This document shows positions 230 to 11,711 of a stretch of DNA of 58,145 nucleotides, one piece after another. Made by a program: the position numbers and the translations under genes. Below the pieces are notes generated by a model that saw nothing but the letters and a program-made list of their open reading frames with translations, was not told the DNA's origin and searched no databases. Position 1 is the stretch's first letter. The number at the start of each line of letters is the position of its first letter. The stretch comes from Bacteroidales bacterium. GTDB taxonomy: Bacteria; Bacteroidota; Bacteroidia; Bacteroidales; UBA932. The stretch lies in assembly GCA_015060335.1 (NCBI GenBank), contig SUYR01000019.1, forward strand, positions 1 through 58,145, read 5' to 3'.

Positions 230-2623
230 ATGAATGTAGATTCAGTTTTTGTGTTAAACCAGGATAAGATACCTGATACACTGCAAGTAGTCGTGGAGAA
301 TATCCCAGAAACCATACTTGTCAATGGAACTGTGGAAATTTCAAATATGGTCGAACCATATAATTATGAAGGACAACTTGATAGTTTGGCGGCTATATGG
401 AGGAGTGTGGCAGAGTTTGGTATTGGTTACAGCGATGCGATTTCAAATATCGCGTTTCCTTTGATAATTGCTGTGTTCGCCTTCGCACTGCCTTTTTTGT
501 TCTCTGCCATTAATCATGTAAACAACAAGTATGAGTCGATAGTAATCGCCAACATGTTCAAATCATCCCCAAAATATAAGACTTTTTGGTGGAGCATAGC
601 TGTTAATGTTGGTGTTATGCTATTGTATGGAGGATTGTCGTTGCTACCCTTTGAAGTATTCCATCATAAGGCTGGTTTGGTTTTCTCGTACTTGTTTCTT
701 GGCCTCGTAATATGGATGGTGATTTCGGTGTTTTTGTTTATGCAATATTGTATGTTATACAATAAACCATATGGTGTTGTTGAGGAAATAAAAAGACGTT
801 ATCAAACAGAGAAGGCTATTGTAGAAAAGAAGGTCTTGAAACAATCAAAGAAGTTCAAGAAGATAGGAGAAACAAAATCACAATCAGGAAAGGAGGTTTT
901 GGAAATGGTGGGTTCTATGTATGTTAGAAGCTATTCAAATAGTGCAGATTTTGAGCTCATTAATCGCTTATCCGAAATGTGTAGATATGCGATCAAGAAG
1001 AATAATTATAGTCTATATTCTTCAGTATGGTTAAAAATGCATGAGATCCAGAAAACCGAAGCTGTATTTGATGATACCCAAAACGAGTCAGTATCGGATG
1101 ATTGTCAGAAGAGATTGACTAATAGTTTCTTGCTCAAGACCTATGAAAGTTTAGAAGAATCATCGATTGGTGTGGAGATACAAGGTTCTCTTATAAGAAC
1201 CTGGTTGCAATGTTTTGCTCATGATAAGTATCCCAATTATAGTGATTTCCATTTGCTTATGCACACCTTATTTAAGGTTGCTGGTAAGGGTAATAGTGGG
1301 TTTATAGAGAAGTACTTTGCCGATAGTAAGTATTCCTTCGGATATGTGCTAACTCTGCCGCAAGTGCTGTATGTCAAGGGTGGTGATACTTCAAAAAGAG
1401 TAAGTGAGGAGAAGAAAAGTCGAGAAACGTGGAATGAAATATGTGATTACCATTTTCTGTTGGCAGCATTTGCTTTTTATATGGGGCTCAAAACGTTACC
1501 GAAGCTAATAATGACAGAAGAGTATGGATTTGAACTGCTTCCGCGAAATAGACAGGAACTGTTACTGACTTATATGAGATGTAAATTAAAAATGAGAGCG
1601 GATGGAGGTTATGATTATTTGAGTGCAGAAGAGTTGTATGGAAGGAGAGTAGATCCTGATTATATTGACACCTTTGCAGTTCTTATGTTTGCATTGTTAG
1701 ATGATGCTAAACGTAAATACTATTTTCTTTATACCCCTAATGACTTCAAAGACAAGATAGACGACTGTAAGAAGATATTCAATAATATCGGTGAAAAATT
1801 CAAGAAGGATACCTATATAATGTCTAGTCACAAAGAAATCTGCCAATTAGATTTTAATAAAGTATTTGAAAATTCAAAGGGGATACTAATAAGTAAGCCT
1901 TCGAAAAAGGAATTTGGCGCCAAAATCCCAAAGTGGTTAGAGCACGATATAAAGATGCATATACATAATCAGATTATGCACTTGAAGAATTTTACCGGTT
2001 TTGAGATGTGGGGAAACACTTCTGAAAATAAGACAGAAGTACTAGAATTTGGCAAGTGTCCTGTCCGATTGTTCAAACACCTTGTTGCACAAATGTCAAG
2101 AGAAGGAGTACGATATTATTTGCGAAATGTGTCAGAGATACATCGTACTAGAGCATACTATCTATATATGCAAATTCTAACGAGTTGGAGTTGTGAGGTA
2201 GTTAAAGTTCGGCCAGATGGTATAGCGGATAAAGTAAAAAACTTAGTTAATAATCATCCTGAAAAATATGTATTAGTTGACTATGATAGCCATGCAGGTA
2301 TATTTCTTTCCAGGGATTATAAGGATTTTCGACATCAAAAATGTGAGGGGATAGATTATGTGATGTGCAATAGTATGGGCTATCTCAAGGATACGTATTT
2401 CTATAAGCAGTTGGAGGGCCGGCTATACCTTATTTTAAAAGATGATTTGCCTGCGTTGATTAGAGCTGTTGATACGGATGTCGATATTACACTAGAGGAT
2501 CAAAGCAATTATGAAAAACAATGCATGGATTTGAGAATGGACATTGATAGTAAGTATGTGATTAAATATAGAAAGAATGTTAATATTACTGCGTTTGAAT
2601 TGCTGCCGATGAATATGAATTAG
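230..2623 (+). CDS. Large membrane protein of unknown function (797 aa)
   Basis: I do not recognise this family. The first 60 or so residues are not hydrophobic. Three predicted membrane helices follow, at about residues 72-94 (ISNIAFPLIIAVFAFALPF), 119-141 and 148-171, and then a long soluble region of about 620 residues, probably cytoplasmic, with many Lys, Tyr and Asp residues. Just after the last helix, at about residues 185-220, is a strongly basic Lys-rich stretch. No nuclease, ATPase or protease motif is obvious. The DNA is clearly AT-richer than the shikimate or leucine genes further on. The gene sits in a same-strand run with a 139-aa membrane protein and two tiny genes next to a tRNA-Leu gene, a context typical of accessory or defence islands. 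That role is inference from context only. Confidence 0.75.
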   Translation: MNVDSVFVLNQDKIPDTLQVVVENIPETILVNGTVEISNMVEPYNYEGQLDSLAAIWRSVAEFGIGYSDAISNIAFPLIIAVFAFALPFLFSAINHVNNKYESIVIANMFKSSPKYKTFWWSIAVNVGVMLLYGGLSLLPFEVFHHKAGLVFSYLFLGLVIWMVISVFLFMQYCMLYNKPYGVVEEIKRRYQTEKAIVEKKVLKQSKKFKKIGETKSQSGKEVLEMVGSMYVRSYSNSADFELINRLSEMCRYAIKKNNYSLYSSVWLKMHEIQKTEAVFDDTQNESVSDDCQKRLTNSFLLKTYESLEESSIGVEIQGSLIRTWLQCFAHDKYPNYSDFHLLMHTLFKVAGKGNSGFIEKYFADSKYSFGYVLTLPQVLYVKGGDTSKRVSEEKKSRETWNEICDYHFLLAAFAFYMGLKTLPKLIMTEEYGFELLPRNRQELLLTYMRCKLKMRADGGYDYLSAEELYGRRVDPDYIDTFAVLMFALLDDAKRKYYFLYTPNDFKDKIDDCKKIFNNIGEKFKKDTYIMSSHKEICQLDFNKVFENSKGILISKPSKKEFGAKIPKWLEHDIKMHIHNQIMHLKNFTGFEMWGNTSENKTEVLEFGKCPVRLFKHLVAQMSREGVRYYLRNVSEIHRTRAYYLYMQILTSWSCEVVKVRPDGIADKVKNLVNNHPEKYVLVDYDSHAGIFLSRDYKDFRHQKCEGIDYVMCNSMGYLKDTYFYKQLEGRLYLILKDDLPALIRAVDTDVDITLEDQSNYEKQCMDLRMDIDSKYVIKYRKNVNITAFELLPMNMN

Positions 2624-4536: not shown

Positions 4537-4566
4537 TTTGATAATTGAAAATAGTTTATAAATTTG
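4537..4566 (+). promoter_or_regulatory. Promoter of the FMN-riboswitch transcript
   Basis: TTTG at 4537-4540, an 18-base spacer and TAAATTTG at 4559-4566 match the Bacteroidota promoter pattern. The expected start, about 7 bases on (near 4573), coincides with the first base of the riboswitch aptamer. Confidence 0.7.
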
Positions 4567-4572
4567 CATCCG

Positions 4573-4717
4573 CATATCTTCAGGGCAGGGTGAGAATCCC
4601 GATCGGCGGTATAGTCCGCGAGCCGAAAGGCACGAACCGTTGGAACTACGGTACCGACAGTGATCCCGTTGGAACGGCATATGTCTTCCGAAGGGTAAGT
4701 CTGGATGAAAGAAGAAT
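4573..4717 (+). promoter_or_regulatory. FMN riboswitch (RFN element)
   Basis: The conserved RFN blocks appear in order: TCTTCAGGGCAGGGTG, CGGCGGTATAGTCCGCGAGCC, ACCGACAGT and AGTCTGGATGAAAGAAGA. Helix P1 forms between TCTTC (4577-4581) and GAAGA (4711-4715). The P5/P6 region is somewhat long. A transcription terminator follows 1-2 bases later, so FMN binding should switch the downstream gene off. The only downstream gene before the next terminator is a TonB-dependent receptor. Confidence 0.93.
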
Positions 4718-4718
4718 C

Positions 4719-4743
4719 GACAGGCCGGTTGGTCCTGTCTTTT
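4719..4743 (+). terminator. Riboswitch expression-platform terminator
   Basis: GACAGG (4719-4724) pairs with CCTGTC (4734-4739), with an inner CC/GG pair around GGTT, followed by TTTT. It lies directly after the FMN aptamer and before the receptor gene, which is the layout of an OFF switch acting on transcription. Confidence 0.85.
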
Positions 4744-4791
4744 AACGCCTTGAATTGTATGCCATGAGTTACAGTTTAAGGTTTTTTGTTT

Positions 4792-7185
4792 ATGAACAGA
4801 CTATTACTTATGGGCATCACAATTCTCTTGTCTGCAATGACTGTGCAGGCAGTTGATGTCCCAGGCAGCAGAGCCGCTTCAGAGAACCCTTCTCAGGTGA
4901 ATCTCAGCATTTCTGACACCCTGACTCTTCAGGAAGTTACTGTACACGCTGTTTTTTCCAATCCTAACAACAGCCCTCTCCGCCTTACTACCATAGATAG
5001 CGAAGAACTTCGTGCACGGGCTGCGGCTCGTACATATCCGGAGCTTATGAAAGCCATACCGGGAGTATATGCTACAGCCGAGACGGGAAGCTACGGGGAT
5101 GCCAAGTTCAATATACGAGGTTTCGGTCAGGAGAATATTGCTGTGCTGCTGAACGGAATTCCTATCAGCGGCCTGACTTCGGGAAATATGTTCTGGAACA
5201 ACTGGATGGGACTTGCGGATGCAACTCATGCCATTCAGCTGCAGAAGGGTGTGGGTGCGTCCATGCTTTCTGACGGATCCGTAGGAGGCTCGGTAAATAT
5301 CATTACTTCAGCGCCGCAGGAAAAGCTGAGTGCCAATGCCGGCATATATGGTTCTCATTTCGGTACATATAAGGGCTATCTCAGCATCAGCAGTGGGCGG
5401 TTGCCGAAAGACTGGTCAGTAAGTCTGATGGCATCATATGTGGGTGGAAAAGGATATGTGGATGCTACAGACGTAAGCGCATTCTCCTATATGCTCAATG
5501 TGGGTAAACGTATCGGCAAGGAGCATACTCTGCTTTTCACCGCCCTGGGCTCGCCGGAAAGGCATGAACAGCGCTCTCAGAGACTTAGTTTTGAGGAGAT
5601 AAATATGTACGGACGTTCCTACAACGAGAACTGGGGATACCGCGACGGAGAGAAGTACAATATCAGCAAGAACAATTATTTCAAGCCATATTTCACTCTT
5701 CAGCATATATGGGACGGAGGGAAATTCTCGATGAAGAATTCCATTTATCTTGCAATCGGAAACGGAGGCGGAAGGTGGACTGAGACGAAGGGAAAGCCGA
5801 TTCTCTCGTTTGTCAAGGACGGACAGATAGACTGGGATGCGGTTGGGCAGGCAAATCTGTCTGCTGACAATTCGTATCTTCCAGCCGGTGCTCCGGAAGG
5901 AAAGGCTGCTGCAAATATGCTGAGTGATTTCATGGCGGGACATACGCAGACCGGTGCAATCGCTTCTGCGGAGTATAAGCTTACGGACAGGTGGACTCTG
6001 GGCGCGGGTGCTCATTATCAGTATTATTCGACTTGGGAACACGAACGCATCACCGATCTTCTCGGAGCGGATTTCTGGTATGAGGATTATGCCGGCAAAT
6101 CACTTGCGGGGCTTGCAGGACGTGACCCGTACAAGACTGTCGGGGATTATGTCCGTACCAATAACGGCAAGGTAACTCATCACGGAACATTTTATCTTAC
6201 AGCACACTATCAATCCGAAAATCTCGCAGCGAATATAGGCCTTTCAGGCTTTGGAAGCGTTAACAGGAGGTGGGATAAATATAATTATACGGGCGCTGAC
6301 GTATGGAGCGATATTGCGAGCGGACTAGGAGCGAGCCTCAAGGGCGGTGTGCTCTGGAGACCAGCATATGGTCACAGCCTGTATATTAACGGAGGATGGT
6401 ACAGCCGCCTGCCATATCCAAGTGTTTGGTTTTCTTCCGGCAATAATGAGATTACTGAAAATGTAAGCAATGAACGCAATACCCTTGGAGAACTGGGCTA
6501 TCGTTTCACATGGGGACGAGGTGGCGTAGAACTGACAGGATATGCGGCTTATTGGAAGAACAGGTCTATGATGTCGGATCCGTATAAGCAGGCAGATGCG
6601 ATCGGAGCCACAAAGTATATGGTGACAGGACTGGATGCGTTCCATTATGGGGCGGAACTGGATGCCTTCTATAAGCCTGCTGACTGGGTGAAGGTCTCAG
6701 CTTATGCTTCTCTCGGCGACTGGAGGTGGAAGAATGATGTGGAAGCCATCATATATGATAATTATTCTGACAATCAGGTGGGAACAGTCGGCGTATATTC
6801 AGATGGACTTCCTGTGGGAGGAGCACCTCAGACTCAGATCGGTGCTGAACTATCGTTCTATATTCCAGGAGGATTCTCAATCACTGCAGACTGGAATTTC
6901 AATGACAGAATGTATGCTGAATTCGATCCTGTGACCCGTACATCTTCTGAGGACCGCAGTCCGGCATACAGAATCCCTGCATACCATATTCTCGGAGCCA
7001 CATTGCAATGGTCAGGAGAGTTTGCCGGAAGGTATGGAGTGACAGTCTTTGCTACTGGTGCCAATTTATTGGATACCATGTATATAGAACGTGGTAAGGA
7101 TGGTGCCGGCCATGATCTGGCTTCATTCCGAGGTTACTGGGGATTCGGGCGTAATTTCTCGTTCGGAATCAGATTCTCGCTATAG
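4792..7185 (+). CDS. TonB-dependent outer-membrane receptor under FMN control; candidate flavin importer
   Basis: This is a 797-aa TonB-dependent transporter. The ATG at 4792 is preferred over a TTG two codons earlier because it starts the signal peptide (MNRLLLMGITILLSAMTVQA). A plug domain spans about residues 45-165, with LQEVTVHAVFSN, the IRGFGQENIAVLLNGIPI block and GSVGGSVNIIT. A 22-strand-type barrel follows and ends in FSFGIRFSL with an aromatic-rich last strand. There is no N-terminal carboxypeptidase-regulatory domain and no SusD partner, so it resembles vitamin or metal receptors more than glycan SusC proteins. Control by an FMN riboswitch is seen directly; uptake of riboflavin, FMN or FAD is inferred from that. 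No inner-membrane flavin transporter is adjacent, and a terminator-like hairpin follows the gene. Confidence 0.88.
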   Translation: MNRLLLMGITILLSAMTVQAVDVPGSRAASENPSQVNLSISDTLTLQEVTVHAVFSNPNNSPLRLTTIDSEELRARAAARTYPELMKAIPGVYATAETGSYGDAKFNIRGFGQENIAVLLNGIPISGLTSGNMFWNNWMGLADATHAIQLQKGVGASMLSDGSVGGSVNIITSAPQEKLSANAGIYGSHFGTYKGYLSISSGRLPKDWSVSLMASYVGGKGYVDATDVSAFSYMLNVGKRIGKEHTLLFTALGSPERHEQRSQRLSFEEINMYGRSYNENWGYRDGEKYNISKNNYFKPYFTLQHIWDGGKFSMKNSIYLAIGNGGGRWTETKGKPILSFVKDGQIDWDAVGQANLSADNSYLPAGAPEGKAAANMLSDFMAGHTQTGAIASAEYKLTDRWTLGAGAHYQYYSTWEHERITDLLGADFWYEDYAGKSLAGLAGRDPYKTVGDYVRTNNGKVTHHGTFYLTAHYQSENLAANIGLSGFGSVNRRWDKYNYTGADVWSDIASGLGASLKGGVLWRPAYGHSLYINGGWYSRLPYPSVWFSSGNNEITENVSNERNTLGELGYRFTWGRGGVELTGYAAYWKNRSMMSDPYKQADAIGATKYMVTGLDAFHYGAELDAFYKPADWVKVSAYASLGDWRWKNDVEAIIYDNYSDNQVGTVGVYSDGLPVGGAPQTQIGAELSFYIPGGFSITADWNFNDRMYAEFDPVTRTSSEDRSPAYRIPAYHILGATLQWSGEFAGRYGVTVFATGANLLDTMYIERGKDGAGHDLASFRGYWGFGRNFSFGIRFSL

Positions 7186-7231
7186 TTACCCTGTCGGCTA
7201 ATATTCTGTGAATCAATATGTTACGTCTCTG

Positions 7232-7256
7232 AGGGTCGGTAAAAATTCCGACCCTT
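7232..7256 (+). terminator. Likely terminator after the receptor gene
   Basis: GGGTCGG (7233-7239) pairs with CCGACCC (7248-7254) around an A/T loop, followed by only a weak TTAAAT run. It separates the riboswitch unit from aroB. The rest of 7186-7387 holds a possible -7 box TAAGTTTG (7362-7369) for aroB and nothing else I recognise. Confidence 0.55.
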
Positions 7257-7387
7257 AAATCGTTAATGTGTTGATACTGATATAGTTGGCGGGCAGACAA
7301 AATATCTCGCATTTCTGATGCATTTGTTGAAATATCTGTACGATAGCCCAAAGATTTTCATTAAGTTTGTAGGATATTTGATATCCT

Positions 7388-8545
7388 ATGGAACAGATAA
7401 ATATTTTTTCCGGCAAAAAGACGATAAGCCATATTCTTGTGGAGAACGGATTGGATGGCCTCTCCGTGGCGCTTGGAACATATGACAGAGTCTATGTGGT
7501 CATGGATAATGCTGTAGCCATGTGCTGCCCGGCTGCCGGACAGATTGCGGAAATACTGAATGCCAGATCGATTCCCGGAATGCTCGTTGAGGCGCACGAG
7601 TCCACCAAGACAATGGATACTGTGATGACCATATGCTCATGGCTTCTCGAACAGGGTGCGGACAGGGACGCGCTTGTGGTAGCAGTAGGAGGCGGCATAA
7701 CCTCAGATATGGTCGGATTCGCAGCATCCATCTATAAGAGGGGAGTGCGTTTTGCCTATGTGCCTACTACATTGCTTTCTCAGGTTGATGCGGCCATTGG
7801 CGGAAAGACCGGAGTTAACTTCGAGAGGTACAAGAATATTCTCGGTGTCATACGTCAGCCTGAATTCACATATATATGCCCCCAGCTGCTTGTAAGCCTG
7901 TCTGAAAGGGATTTTCTTTCGGGTGTAGCAGAGATGCTGAAGACATTCATCATTGAGGATAATGAGAATTATTATGATGCGGTAGGACTGCTTTCCGATA
8001 TGAATATGGAGCATTGCAGCCGCATGTCAGCAGGAGAGGATGAAGTGGAATCATGGCAGGAATGCGTAGAGAAATATTCAGGCGAACTTCTCAAGCTGAT
8101 ATGTGAAGCAGCAAAGGTAAAGGCCGGAGTTGTGTCTCGTGATCAGTATGAAAAGGACGAACGCAGAAAGCTCAATCTCGGACATACATTCGCGCATGCC
8201 ATAGAGACTCTTGCACAACGCAGACCTGACGGAAATGATGTGACTCATGGTGAAGCGGTTGCGATGGGAATCTTACTTGCTGCAGAGCTTTCCGAGAGAT
8301 ATGCAAAACAGGATGAAGCCTGGATGGAAATATGTGATTATGACCTTCATAAACGCCTTACTGATGATTTTCTTTCCATAGGTCTGCCTGTAAATTGCCC
8401 GTATCGTATTGAGGATATGGCTGAGGTGATGAAGAAAGACAAGAAGGCGGAAGCCGGGAAGGTGCACTTTGTTCTTCCTGCCGCAGTGGGCGATGTCCGT
8501 ATAGTGGACTTTACTGTTGATGAAATCCTTTCCCTTATGGCCTGA
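7388..8545 (+). CDS. aroB: 3-dehydroquinate synthase
   Basis: AroB (385 aa) converts DAHP to 3-dehydroquinate, the second step of the shikimate pathway, in the cytoplasm using NAD and a divalent metal. The NAD-binding glycine motif VVAVGGGITSDMVGFAAS, the PTTLLSQVDAAIGGKTGVN block with conserved Asp and Lys, and the metal-binding His regions (NLGHTFAHAIE, THGEAVAMGI) are all visible. It is slightly longer than the common 350-370 residues because of an acidic insert near residue 215. It starts a same-strand run aroB, aroD-aroA fusion, aroC, with 50 bases to the next gene. Confidence 0.95.
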   Translation: MEQINIFSGKKTISHILVENGLDGLSVALGTYDRVYVVMDNAVAMCCPAAGQIAEILNARSIPGMLVEAHESTKTMDTVMTICSWLLEQGADRDALVVAVGGGITSDMVGFAASIYKRGVRFAYVPTTLLSQVDAAIGGKTGVNFERYKNILGVIRQPEFTYICPQLLVSLSERDFLSGVAEMLKTFIIEDNENYYDAVGLLSDMNMEHCSRMSAGEDEVESWQECVEKYSGELLKLICEAAKVKAGVVSRDQYEKDERRKLNLGHTFAHAIETLAQRRPDGNDVTHGEAVAMGILLAAELSERYAKQDEAWMEICDYDLHKRLTDDFLSIGLPVNCPYRIEDMAEVMKKDKKAEAGKVHFVLPAAVGDVRIVDFTVDEILSLMA

Positions 8546-8595
8546 CCTTCGTTCACACCGGACCGGTCTGTCATTCTGAAAAACATAAACGAACT

Positions 8596-10686
8596 ATGAT
8601 CTGTACAACAATAATAAATAAAGACCTCAAGGGTATTCTCGCTGCTCTTGAATCCTGTGAGATGGCAGAAATACGCCTTGACAGCTGTGACCTTTCCATG
8701 AAGGACATAGAAGAGGTTTTCTCTTCTGATGTCCCATTGGTGGCAACATGCAGGATAGCTGAACTTATGACTGGCGAGCCGTCCCTTCAGGATCCGTCCA
8801 TGTCGGAGCAAAGCCGTGAATTCAAGGCAATGCAGATTGCTGAGAAAAAACTCATCCGTGCTATTGAGGCAGGTGCACGCTATGTGGATGTGGAGATAGA
8901 AGTGCAGAAACAGATGTCAAAAAGGATAAGGAATACCGCACATGAAAACGGAACTATATTCCTGAGGTCATATCATGATTTTTCCGGAACTGGTAGTGTC
9001 GATCAGCTGCGAAGTATGGTGGAGAACTGCAGATATCATGGAGCTGACATGGTGAAGCTTGTCACCACGGCACATTCTCAGGAGGATGTGGATAGGGTAA
9101 TGTCTCTTTATGAGTGGTGCAGGACAGAGGCCGGCAATGGTGTGGAGGCTCTTGCTGACGGCGGGCTGATAGCATTCTGCATGGGAGAAGAGGGTAAACA
9201 GTCCCGTATCGAATGCCTGAAAAAAGGAGCTCCCTATACTTACGCTGCACTTTCAGCAGAAGAGGCTGCGGCTCCGGGACAGTGGCCGGCAGCGGAAATG
9301 GCAGAAAAGGTGTATGGTAATCATAAGTTCGTCAATTCGGATCCGCTGGTGATGCCGGTTTCCAAAAGTTATGCTCAGAGAGCTATAATTGCCGCAGCTC
9401 TTGCCGATGGGGAGTCTCACCTCAAAGGATATACTTCATGCGGTGATAACGAGTCAGCGTTGAAGGTGGCGCAGATGCTTGGAGCGGAGGTTAGGCGAGA
9501 TGGCAGTGAGCTGATAATCAATGGTATATCGGCTTCTCTGGGATGTCTGGACAAATCGGAACTTCATGTAGGTGAATCAGGACTTCTGACCAGGGTAATG
9601 ATACCTGTAATGACACAACTATGTCCTGAGAAGGTTACATTTACCGGTGAAAAGACTTTACCGGGACGTCCTCTTACAGGAGCAAAGGAGATCCTTGAAA
9701 TACTTGGAGCGGAATCATACAATTGCAGTCAGGAGTCATTGGAAGTCATGGAGGGTGATGATTGCCTTCGTATTCCTCTTGCCGTCAGAGGACCGCTCAA
9801 ACCTGGAAGGGCAGATATATCAGGCAAGCATGGATCTCAGCTCATATCAGGTCTTCTTATGGCATTGCCGTTTGCCGAGCGCAATTCAAATCTGGTAGTA
9901 CACGAGCCGAAGAGTATTCCATATATGTTCATTACCCTTGAGATTCTCAAGAAATTCGGCATAAAGATCGGTAACGAGATGTTGGGAGGACGTGATTTCC
10001 TTGAATCGAACGGGGACTGGTCACTTTGTACTGAAATGGTATTCAAGGTGAAGGGTGGTCAGAAATTCAAGGCAGCAGATATCGACCTCGAGGGCGACTG
10101 GAGTGCCGCTGCTAATTTCCTTGTAGCAGGTGCGATTTTCGGAAAAGCTGAGTTGTCAGGACTGGATACGACTTCGCTACAGGCCGATCTTTGCGTAATG
10201 GATATACTCATGGATGCAGGAGCGAGTCTTTCTCAGCTTGATGGTGATAAAGGAAATATAACAGTACAGCGTGCCCCTTTGAAGGCGTTCAATGTGGATG
10301 CTTCCAATTGCCCGGACCTTTTCCCGATAATTTCTGTCTTGGCTGCATTCTGTCAGGGTACAAGCCGTCTTGAGGGAGTAGGCAGACTTGCCAACAAGGA
10401 AAGCAACAGGGCAAAGGCAATCATCGGGATGCTTACTCAGATGGGAGTGAAGGCTTCGGTGGAAGATGATGAAATGGTGATTGAAGGACATTCTCTTACA
10501 GAGCGTATTCTCAATTCAAATATGCTCAAGGGAGGTAGCTATACATCATGCCATGATCATAGAATGGTGATGGCTCTCAAAGTAGCTTCGCTTGGAGCGG
10601 ACAGCCCGATTGTAATCGATGATGAGGAATGTGTCGGCAAATCATTCCCACAGTTTCATGAAATATTTGACATACTTGTAAAATGA
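8596..10686 (+). CDS. Fused type I 3-dehydroquinate dehydratase and EPSP synthase
   Basis: A single open frame of 696 codons carries two shikimate enzymes. Residues 1 to about 240 are a type I dehydroquinase (AroD, step 3), with AEIRLD, the catalytic His127 in RSYHDF and the Schiff-base Lys154 in MVKLVTTA. Residues from about 245 on are 5-enolpyruvylshikimate-3-phosphate synthase (AroA, step 6). They show MPVSKSYAQRA with Lys257, GESGLLTR, GSQLISGLLMALP, the Asp in NCPDLFPII, and HRMVMALK plus VGKSFPQF near the C-terminus. The frame is uninterrupted through the junction, so the fusion is not a sequencing split. The two domains catalyse non-consecutive steps. The stop overlaps the start of aroC by 4 bases (ATGA), implying coupled translation. 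Confidence 0.93.
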   Translation: MICTTIINKDLKGILAALESCEMAEIRLDSCDLSMKDIEEVFSSDVPLVATCRIAELMTGEPSLQDPSMSEQSREFKAMQIAEKKLIRAIEAGARYVDVEIEVQKQMSKRIRNTAHENGTIFLRSYHDFSGTGSVDQLRSMVENCRYHGADMVKLVTTAHSQEDVDRVMSLYEWCRTEAGNGVEALADGGLIAFCMGEEGKQSRIECLKKGAPYTYAALSAEEAAAPGQWPAAEMAEKVYGNHKFVNSDPLVMPVSKSYAQRAIIAAALADGESHLKGYTSCGDNESALKVAQMLGAEVRRDGSELIINGISASLGCLDKSELHVGESGLLTRVMIPVMTQLCPEKVTFTGEKTLPGRPLTGAKEILEILGAESYNCSQESLEVMEGDDCLRIPLAVRGPLKPGRADISGKHGSQLISGLLMALPFAERNSNLVVHEPKSIPYMFITLEILKKFGIKIGNEMLGGRDFLESNGDWSLCTEMVFKVKGGQKFKAADIDLEGDWSAAANFLVAGAIFGKAELSGLDTTSLQADLCVMDILMDAGASLSQLDGDKGNITVQRAPLKAFNVDASNCPDLFPIISVLAAFCQGTSRLEGVGRLANKESNRAKAIIGMLTQMGVKASVEDDEMVIEGHSLTERILNSNMLKGGSYTSCHDHRMVMALKVASLGADSPIVIDDEECVGKSFPQFHEIFDILVK

Positions 10687-11711
10687 ATACATTCGGAAGA
10701 AAGTTCAGAGTCTCCATTTTCGGAGAGTCGCATGGCGAATTGATAGGAGCGGTCATTGATGGAGTGCCTGCAGGGCTTGAGCTGTGCGAGGAAGATTTCC
10801 AGACGGATATCCTCAGACGCAAAAGCGGTGCGAAAGGTACAACTCCACGTATTGAAGCAGATCTGCCGTCTATAGTCAGCGGAATATTCGAGGGCCATAC
10901 TACAGGTGCTCCTCTCACAATTATATTTCGGAATACAAACACCCATTCATCAGACTATAGTCTGTTCTCCGCAATGCCGCGTCCGGGTCATGCAGACCTT
11001 ACTGCAGCCCTCAAATGGGATGACTGTCAGGATCCTCGAGGCGGCGGACATTTTTCGGGAAGACTTACCTTGCCGATTGTAGCCGCCGGTGTTGTAGCGA
11101 AGAAGATGCTCTCAGATCTTACTATTCTGGATGAAACTCCTTGTAATGACATACATGCGGATATCATCGAACTTGGTGGCATACCTCGCCCGGCTGATAC
11201 TCCGGACGGAGAGCAGCCACAGGCATGGCGACAGGCGATCGATCAGGTTGTCAAGGAAGGTGACAGTCTCGGAGCGATAGTGGAATGTACGGTTCCTGAT
11301 ATCGATCCAGGTTATGGCGAGCCTTTCTGGGACAGCGTGGAATCATGTCTAGCTCATGCGGTCTTTGCCATACCGGGAGTGCGAGGCATAGAGTTCGGTG
11401 ATGGCTTCAAGGCTGCAGCTATGAAGGGCTCTGAGCATAACGATCCTATAACTGAAAGCGGAAGACCTTCAAAAAATGGTGCCGGAGGAATCAACGGTGG
11501 TATCACAAACGGTGCTCCAATATGTTTCAGAGTAGCATTCAAGCCTACTTCAAGCATACGTAAGGCGCAGCAGACATATAATTTTGAGAAAGGGGAAATG
11601 GATTCTCTTGAGGTCCCAGGACGCCATGATGTATGCTTTGCCTTAAGGGCTCCTGTAGTTGTAGAGGCTATGACTGCGATAGTGCTTGCAGACCTTGTGA
11701 GTCTACGATAA
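10683..11711 (+). CDS. aroC: Chorismate synthase
   Basis: AroC (342 aa) makes chorismate from EPSP using reduced FMN, the last step of the shikimate pathway. The N-terminal signature is clear (GRKFRVSIFGESHGE), as are the central RPGHADL and DPRGGGHFSGR blocks and the FMN-site region GDGFKAAAMKGSEHND. Its start overlaps the stop of the AroD-AroA gene by 4 bases. The cluster lacks aroE and aroK, which must lie elsewhere. Its FMN need is a chemical link to the flavin-regulated gene upstream, but an intervening terminator argues against co-regulation. Confidence 0.95.
   Translation: MNTFGRKFRVSIFGESHGELIGAVIDGVPAGLELCEEDFQTDILRRKSGAKGTTPRIEADLPSIVSGIFEGHTTGAPLTIIFRNTNTHSSDYSLFSAMPRPGHADLTAALKWDDCQDPRGGGHFSGRLTLPIVAAGVVAKKMLSDLTILDETPCNDIHADIIELGGIPRPADTPDGEQPQAWRQAIDQVVKEGDSLGAIVECTVPDIDPGYGEPFWDSVESCLAHAVFAIPGVRGIEFGDGFKAAAMKGSEHNDPITESGRPSKNGAGGINGGITNGAPICFRVAFKPTSSIRKAQQTYNFEKGEMDSLEVPGRHDVCFALRAPVVVEAMTAIVLADLVSLR

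What the first reader, a model, noticed from the sequence alone, without database searches (positions are those of the whole stretch)
4573..7185. FMN riboswitch directly controlling a TonB-dependent receptor
A well-formed RFN aptamer with its own promoter and OFF terminator precedes a single gene, a 797-aa TonB-dependent receptor without SusD partner. RFN elements normally control riboflavin synthesis or inner-membrane transporters. An outer-membrane receptor under FMN control predicts active uptake of riboflavin, FMN, FAD or a flavin-carrying molecule across the outer membrane, by analogy with B12 (BtuB) and thiamine receptors. I do not recall a characterised flavin TonB receptor, though similar predictions may exist.
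Basis: partly seen in the sequence, partly recalled or inferred. Interest (0 to 1): 0.85.

Follow-up and report, generated by a model that had tools for sequence, protein, structure and literature searches.

The report
Vitamin B2-controlled outer-membrane flavin receptor
A Bacteroidales genome in which two key vitamin B2 synthesis genes were not found carries an RNA element of the FMN-riboswitch family directly in front of an outer-membrane receptor gene, and the same pair recurs across the order in genomes lacking a key B2 synthesis gene, so the receptor is predicted to be the door through which these bacteria would pull flavins (vitamin B2 or its cofactor forms) through their outer membrane, a step for which no protein was seen in the papers searched here.

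Summary
An FMN riboswitch (RF00050, 78 bits, gathering 66.2) lies at 4572-4720, 71 nt before a 797-aa TonB-dependent receptor (4792-7185), with a Bacteroidota-type promoter and a conserved terminator/antiterminator. It is not a one-off. In the window's family 30 of 149 genomes carry an orthologue; 29 have the riboswitch directly upstream and 0 of 30 have ribH. Across the order, 61 further genomes (62 sites) split almost cleanly: 22 whose only site leads to such a receptor all lack ribH; 37 with a site before ribD or ribB all have it (one of these also has a receptor site). The next-closest receptors, without riboswitch, sit mostly in genomes with ribH (29 of 31 checked). In 7 of 22 loci of other families an ENPP-type nucleotide pyrophosphatase (one a fragment) follows, a plausible FAD-splitting partner. 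Transport is untested, and 78 of 149 family genomes have neither receptor nor ribH, so other routes must exist. Two published FMN-riboswitch surveys, seen in passages, show no TonB receptor. New variant of a known kind (compare BtuB/B12 and OMthi/thiamine).

The parts
4537..4566 (+). Bacteroidota-type promoter: TTTG (4537-4540), 18 nt, TAAATTTG (4559-4566)
   Evidence: Read, letters checked; a TAnnTTTG box occurs from about 40 nt before to 9 nt into the aptamer in 58 of 74 riboswitch-receptor loci against 2.0 expected from letter shuffles. The consensus itself is recalled.
4572..4720 (+). FMN riboswitch aptamer (RFN element)
   Evidence: RF00050, 78.0 bits, gathering 66.2; aligns with 43 relatives
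4579..4586 (+). Aptamer stretch TTCAGGGC that can pair with the terminator's 5' arm (antiterminator half)
   Evidence: Complementarity to GCCTTGAA at 4747-4754; exact GCCTTGAATTG downstream of the aptamer in 30 of 74 loci
4748..4787 (+). Intrinsic terminator: CCTTGAATTGTA / TACAGTTTAAGG stem (4748-4759, 4770-4781), then TTTTTT (4782-4787)
   Evidence: 12-bp stem, -11.8 kcal/mol; same hairpin with T run in close relatives
4792..7185 (+). TonB-dependent outer-membrane receptor, 797 aa, predicted flavin receptor
   Evidence: Plug PF07715 3.2e-13; predicted fold pLDDT 80.5, matches TonB-dependent transporters
7230..7257 (+). Hairpin after the receptor, possible end of a one-gene transcript
   Evidence: -17.9 kcal/mol for 7226-7258; no clear T run follows, so the terminator role is inferred

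Best explanation
This is most likely a one-gene flavin-uptake unit: an FMN riboswitch sits directly before a TonB-dependent outer-membrane receptor that is predicted to import riboflavin, FMN or FAD in a bacterium likely unable to make riboflavin. Shown by sequence: promoter-like box, aptamer, a terminator whose 5' arm can alternatively pair with the aptamer's 5' strand, and the receptor. Inferred: when FMN is scarce the aptamer strand TTCAGGGC pairs with GCCTTGAA, the terminator cannot form and the receptor is made; when FMN is plentiful it folds the aptamer, frees the 5' arm, and transcription stops just before the start codon. Inferred: the receptor, energised by TonB, binds a flavin outside and passes it to the periplasm; an inner-membrane carrier, not identified here, takes it further, and the flavokinase found in the genome makes FMN. 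In some other families a nucleotide pyrophosphatase encoded behind the receptor would split FAD to FMN and AMP in the periplasm (inferred).
For: Riboswitch above the curated cut-off. In the family, 29 of 30 genomes with an orthologue have the riboswitch directly upstream; 0 of 30 have ribH against 41 of 149 overall, and 1 of 30 has ribB against 42 of 149. In the order, 62 sites in 61 genomes outside the family: first gene ribD 26, ribB 11, receptor 23, off contig 1, another outer-membrane protein 1; ribH absent in 22 of 22 receptor-only genomes and present in 37 of 37 with a ribD- or ribB-linked site. Orthologues in the order draw: 25 genomes, riboswitch upstream in 24 (the 25th is cut by its contig end), ribH in 0 of 25. 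Specificity control: the 31 best-scoring next relatives without riboswitch, ribH in 29. Four genera contain both states: g1, g4, g6 and g100. Flavokinase present in the window's genome. A nucleotide pyrophosphatase follows the receptor in 7 of 22 loci of other families, one of them a fragment.
Against: No binding, growth or expression data. 78 of 149 family genomes have neither ribH nor the receptor, among them four same-genus genomes at 98-99% completeness, so genomes without ribH can do without it. Two of the 31 riboswitch-less next relatives also lack ribH. Two orthologue loci with enough upstream sequence show no riboswitch (L085; L139, apparently the same record as G066). One genome with ribH (G362) also has a receptor-linked site. 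No inner-membrane flavin carrier is linked to the receptor. The fold match is to the whole transporter superfamily. In the thiamine parallel the riboswitch-linked transport operons did not change significantly with thiamine (passage of PMC5613172), so response to FMN must be measured. The window genome is 86% complete, so its own missing rib genes are less certain than those of G041 (100% complete, same pair, same absences).
Confidence: 0.87

Rival explanations
1. The receptor imports something else whose need follows flavin status, for example an iron chelate or haem, and the FMN riboswitch only couples it to flavin level.
For: Iron and riboflavin metabolism are linked in some bacteria (passages of PMC6041382); the plug region weakly matches haem, siderophore and B12 receptor models and one PDB siderophore receptor.
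Against: Does not predict that receptor-only riboswitch genomes lack ribH (22 of 22) while those with ribD- or ribB-linked sites have it (37 of 37). All nine NCBIfam hits are far below their cut-offs, e.g. 49.2 against 316.85 bits. The next relatives without riboswitch are mostly in genomes with ribH (29 of 31).
Confidence: 0.08
2. The receptor takes up a flavin-bearing or flavin-like compound other than the free cofactors (a protein-bound flavin, lumichrome, a deazaflavin or a lumazine).
For: TonB-dependent receptors often take bulky ligands (general knowledge); the closest Foldseek match is the PQQ receptor PqqU/YncD, though many superfamily members score well.
Against: The riboswitch family reports FMN (established knowledge), and carriers lack ribH, so they would need a flavin that flavokinase can use.
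Confidence: 0.1
3. The riboswitch is left over from a lost rib operon and now sits by chance before an unrelated gene.
For: In the same genus other genomes have the riboswitch before ribD.
Against: The pair recurs across many families, most receptor-linked aptamers of the family differ as a type from the ribD-linked ones, and the promoter and antiterminator are conserved.
Confidence: 0.02

Closest known systems
OMthi (BT2390) of Bacteroides thetaiotaomicron, a TonB-dependent thiamine receptor under a TPP riboswitch (PMC5613172, passages read)
   Same: Vitamin riboswitch before a TonB-dependent receptor in the same order; deletion together with synthesis raises the thiamine requirement about tenfold over deletion of synthesis alone (passages)
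   Different: Ligand is thiamine; in most genomes one operon with pnuT and tnr3; B. thetaiotaomicron also makes thiamine, while the flavin pair is in genomes without ribH
BtuB, cobalamin receptor
   Different: Far below the NCBIfam cut-offs for B12 receptors (42.7 against 836; 35.1 against 599.7 bits); FMN, not cobalamin, riboswitch
PqqU (YncD), receptor for the redox cofactor PQQ
   Same: Top Foldseek match (9c4o, E 1.5e-38, TM 0.80 by target length, 15% identity); ligand is a small aromatic redox cofactor
   Different: No kinship shown beyond the superfamily; no FMN riboswitch known to me (recalled)
Riboflavin transporters found by FMN riboswitch: RibU, RibM/PnuX, RibN, ImpX, RibXY, RibZ, RibV, RfuABCD (PMC4418817, passages incl. 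Table 1; PMC3766115, passages)
   Same: Transport gene directly under an FMN riboswitch
   Different: As described in those passages they are permeases, ABC/ECF systems or their binding proteins; none is a TonB receptor (the search for TonB gave 0 occurrences in either main text)

Membership tests
FMN riboswitch (RF00050) | Covariance score at or above the gathering score, full-length model match | tested here: met
   78.0 against 66.2 bits, model 1-138
FMN riboswitch (RF00050) | Conserved aptamer core shared with ribD-linked elements | tested here: met
   45 invariant columns in 44 aligned elements, receptor- and ribD-linked
FMN riboswitch (RF00050) | Binds FMN and changes expression | not testable with these tools
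   Needs in-line probing or a reporter
TonB-dependent receptor superfamily | Plug domain | tested here: met
   PF07715, 50.6 against 23.9 bits
TonB-dependent receptor superfamily | Large outer-membrane barrel around the plug | tested here: met
   Predicted model only: pLDDT 80.5, pTM 0.80, aligned over residues 37-797 with BtuB, FecA, FhuA; the Pfam barrel model PF00593 is not hit
TonB-dependent receptor superfamily | Works with TonB | not tested
   No experiment; TonB box not examined
SusC/SusD pair | SusD lipoprotein next to the receptor | tested here: not met
   Flanking genes are a GDSL lipase and aroB
BtuB (vitamin B12 receptor) | Equivalog score cut-off | tested here: not met
   NF007926 42.7 against 836; TIGR01779 35.1 against 599.7 bits
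Haem/haemoglobin receptor | Subfamily score cut-off | tested here: not met
   TIGR01785 49.2 against 316.85 bits
Flavin uptake system | Measured flavin binding or uptake | not testable with these tools
   Inferred from riboswitch and absence of ribH

The most novel reading that the evidence does not exclude
Bacteroidales own a dedicated outer-membrane flavin import route that has taken the place of riboflavin synthesis across many families: a TonB receptor class that takes up flavins, including intact FAD, a periplasmic ENPP-type pyrophosphatase that splits FAD to FMN, and in some lineages further outer-membrane partners (a SusC/SusD pair in one genome, an OMP_b-brl_4 protein in others), all placed under FMN riboswitches.
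Probability: 0.42. Interest if true: 0.87.

Novelty: new variant of a known kind. Interest (0 to 1): 0.77.

Why it matters
How Gram-negative bacteria get flavins through the outer membrane is not described in the passages read here, which name only transporters of other kinds. A TonB receptor class whose riboswitch-linked form is found, with one exception, only where ribH is missing makes the question directly testable, predicts which Bacteroidales depend on others for vitamin B2, and would add flavins to the cargo of TonB-dependent transport beside B12, thiamine and PQQ.

Tried and rejected
The simple terminator scan found none; its rules do not fit this stem with a 10-nt loop.

Leader folding: z -1.89, 10 of 200 shuffles as good, weak; the case rests on conservation, not energy.

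Inner-membrane flavin carrier: 100 neighbourhoods (L032-L051 and L083-L162; 94 hold the receptor) were clustered; no recognisable carrier gene keeps company with the receptor, but only 16 proteins of these loci were read and few were scanned. One locus (L137) has an MFS-like gene next to the receptor, not followed.

Operons of other families: some have a second receptor-like gene or an OMP_b-brl_4 protein between receptor and pyrophosphatase; their role is not settled.

G033's hit (25.6 bits) was dropped as below cut-off and without a related gene. G432's site (28.5 bits, cut by the contig end) was kept because its receptor is a clear orthologue. G676's two weak sites: one before ribD, one without a gene found.

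Structure search: whole superfamily matches; no inference on ligand drawn. Tree: quick method, long branches among the other receptors; 7 of the 49 Plug-bearing genes of the genome were used (nine fetched, two dropped as short), and no receptors of known substrate.

Literature: ten full-text searches; most hits were seen as listings only, seven papers in passages, none in full. No paper describing a flavin TonB receptor was seen. The library is open-licence PMC only, so subscription papers and databases such as RegPrecise are not excluded.

Whole-genome scripts were not possible.

Full report
OBSERVATION. The FMN riboswitch is real: RF00050 at 4572-4720 +, 78.0 bits against a gathering score of 66.2, whole model. 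It is the only one found in the assembly of 2.46 Mb, 54 contigs, 86.1% complete. The ATG of the receptor is at 4792 and the stop ends at 7185, 797 aa. Pfam finds only the Plug domain. Neither adjacent gene is SusD: a GDSL lipase upstream and aroB downstream, the latter 202 nt away, with a hairpin at 7230-7257 between them. The receptor is therefore most likely a one-gene transcript (inferred).

LEADER ANATOMY. A TTTG-N18-TAAATTTG promoter of the Bacteroidota kind (consensus recalled) lies at 4537-4566. In 74 riboswitch-receptor loci (the window and 73 public ones) TAnnTTTG occurs between about 40 nt before and 9 nt into the aptamer in 58, against 2.0 expected from shuffles; with a TTTG at the right spacing in 18 against 0.08. 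Between aptamer and start codon lies a 12-bp hairpin followed by six T (4748-4787; -11.8 kcal/mol). Its 5' arm region GCCTTGAA (4747-4754) is complementary to TTCAGGGC (4579-4586) on the aptamer's 5' side. Exact GCCTTGAATTG follows the aptamer in 30 of 74 loci, and the first 18 loci listed (29 were examined) all show the hairpin with a T run, 17 built on GCCTTGAA and one (L095) on GCCTTGGA; of the other 11, six carry GCCTTGAA, one of them with a T run. This is a textbook arrangement for an FMN-off switch: pairing of the aptamer strand with the arm excludes the terminator, and FMN-bound aptamer frees it. That mechanism is inferred. In 22 of 74 loci the first in-frame ATG lies within -1 to +6 nt of the aptamer's 3' end and no terminator was found (8 more give an ATG inside the aptamer, and in 13 no start was assigned), so control there is probably at translation (inferred).

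THE PAIR RECURS. In 149 genomes of the window's family, 52 have an FMN riboswitch match (51 above cut-off). The receptor search gives 35 genomes at E below 1e-60, of which 30 are orthologues (E below 1e-176, the window's own genome included) and 5 hold only a relative of 30-33% identity. The other 28 unbroken orthologues are 44-67% identical to the window's receptor; the copy in G044 is frame-broken. By the coordinates, 29 of the 30 have the riboswitch directly upstream on the same strand; the exception is G066. Of the other 23 riboswitch genomes 21 have ribH; in the 16 of these that I read the next gene is ribD (one example confirmed by Pfam RibD_C 3.2e-51). One (G140) has a SusC/SusD pair behind its riboswitch, and one (G033) is a sub-threshold hit. 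In public genomes, titled Bacteroidales, Candidatus Cryptobacteroides, Candidatus Egerieousia and the like, a model built finds the element before the receptor in 73 of 80 loci; 5 misses have under 175 nt of upstream sequence and 2 (L085, L139) are true misses at a permissive threshold. Most receptor-linked aptamers of the family differ from the ribD-linked ones, most plainly in one hairpin (GTTG...TACG against GGTG...TCCG); seven receptor-linked ones carry a third form.

IT GOES WITH ABSENCE OF SYNTHESIS GENES. ribH (PF00885) is present in 41 of 149 family genomes and in 0 of the 30 with the receptor (Fisher p 2e-5, not corrected for kinship). ribB (PF00926) is present in 42 of 149 and in 1 of 30 (G043, which lacks ribH). 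The window's own genome lacks both, as does G041, a 100%-complete genome of the same genus with the same pair. It keeps flavokinase, and it still needs FMN: chorismate synthase, an FMN-dependent enzyme (recalled), is encoded at 10683-11711 of the window. Other rib genes were not searched genome-wide.

ACROSS THE ORDER. 65 of 295 genomes have the element (64 above cut-off). Leaving out the four of the window's family, 61 genomes hold 62 sites. The first gene is ribD in 26, ribB in 11, a receptor in 23, off the contig in 1 (G410), and the start of another outer-membrane protein in 1 (G294) (ribD and receptors by BLAST, ribB by reading, examples confirmed by Pfam). ribH: absent in 22 of 22 genomes whose only site is before a receptor, present in 37 of 37 with a site before ribD or ribB, present in G410, absent in G294 (p 1e-16 for 22 against 37, not corrected for kinship). 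Only ribH was tested here, not the rest of the pathway. The receptor-only state is found in 13 families besides the window's own, and four genera contain both states (g1, g4, g6, g100), so it is not one old event. G362 has both kinds of site, has ribH, and its first receptor frame is broken.

SPECIFICITY. Searching the 295 order genomes with the receptor gives 109 with E below 1e-40, with a clear step: 24 genomes at 496.8 bits or more, plus G193 in two contig-end pieces, then nothing until 401.8 bits. Of these 25, 24 have the riboswitch upstream (the contig of the 25th, G395, starts inside the gene; the site of G432 is cut short and below cut-off) and 0 have ribH. Of the 84 genomes with only lower matches I checked the 31 best-scoring without a riboswitch hit: 29 have ribH. 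One genome, G197, has the riboswitch before a receptor of the lower tier and lacks ribH; it is counted among the 22 above. In the tree these lower-tier receptors and the riboswitch-linked ones form one group apart from seven other receptors of the window's genome, SH-aLRT 99 (quick tree). Order receptors can carry an N-terminal CarboxypepD_reg domain (G349) that Pfam does not find in the window's receptor. A phylum-wide draw of 395 genomes gave 28 above cut-off, the window's genome included; the other 27 lead to ribD or ribB (the ribB calls rest on reading, with two of these examples, L192 and L216, confirmed by Pfam), so the receptor use looks like a Bacteroidales invention within this sample.

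PARTNERS. In 7 of 22 receptor loci of other families (five families) a nucleotide pyrophosphatase/phosphodiesterase follows on the same strand, in G249 as a fragment of 136 aa; the G349 copy matches PF01663 at 6e-90, ENPP1 at 5.6e-80 and a bacterial phosphodiesterase-nucleotide pyrophosphatase at 1.3e-72. Enzymes of this kind split dinucleotides, FAD among them (recalled), so these runs look built for FAD (inferred). No such neighbour stood out in the window's family.

FOLD. The predicted model (pLDDT 80.5) is a TonB-dependent transporter; best Foldseek match PqqU/YncD, best structural alignments BtuB. This fixes the class, not the ligand.

KNOWN. Two FMN-riboswitch surveys were read in passages: PMC3766115 (no FMN regulon in Bacteroidaceae; 0 occurrences of TonB) and PMC4418817 (Table 1 of non-synthesis targets holds no outer-membrane receptor). 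PMC6593275 (passages) lists only other riboflavin transporters. PMC5613172 (passages) is the thiamine parallel, tested by deletion. I therefore call this a new variant of a known kind.

LIMITS. The substrate is inferred; many family genomes lack both ribH and the receptor (78 of 149; some of them incomplete); the inner-membrane step is unknown; counts are not corrected for kinship.

Noticed in passing
L032 5738-8869 and 4168-5727 (-), riboswitch at 9001-9118 (-): In genome G140 an FMN riboswitch of the receptor-linked type precedes a SusC/SusD pair instead of the receptor, hinting at a second outer-membrane flavin system.
   Followed up: partly
L275 (G362): A genome with ribH and an FMN riboswitch before ribD also has an FMN riboswitch before a receptor whose first frame is broken into pieces, followed by an unbroken lower-tier receptor and a pyrophosphatase.
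   Followed up: partly
L187 (G294), 1501-1620 and the gene after it: FMN riboswitch before the start of an outer-membrane protein about 34% identical to the OMP_b-brl_4-type proteins that follow the receptor in other families; genome lacks ribH.
   Followed up: partly
Genomes G084, G096, G107, G129 (same genus, 98-99% complete): No ribH, no ribB, no receptor orthologue and no FMN riboswitch match: flavin supply unexplained.
   Followed up: no
L085 and L255: Receptor orthologues with enough upstream sequence but no FMN riboswitch even at a permissive threshold.
   Followed up: partly
window 7388-11711: aroB, an aroD-aroA fusion and aroC follow the receptor; gene runs of matching lengths lie beside it in several relatives (clusters 12, 8, 9). 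Chorismate synthase needs FMN (recalled), but a functional link is unproven.
   Followed up: no
window 230-2623: 797-aa protein without any Pfam or NCBIfam match at E 0.001.
   Followed up: no
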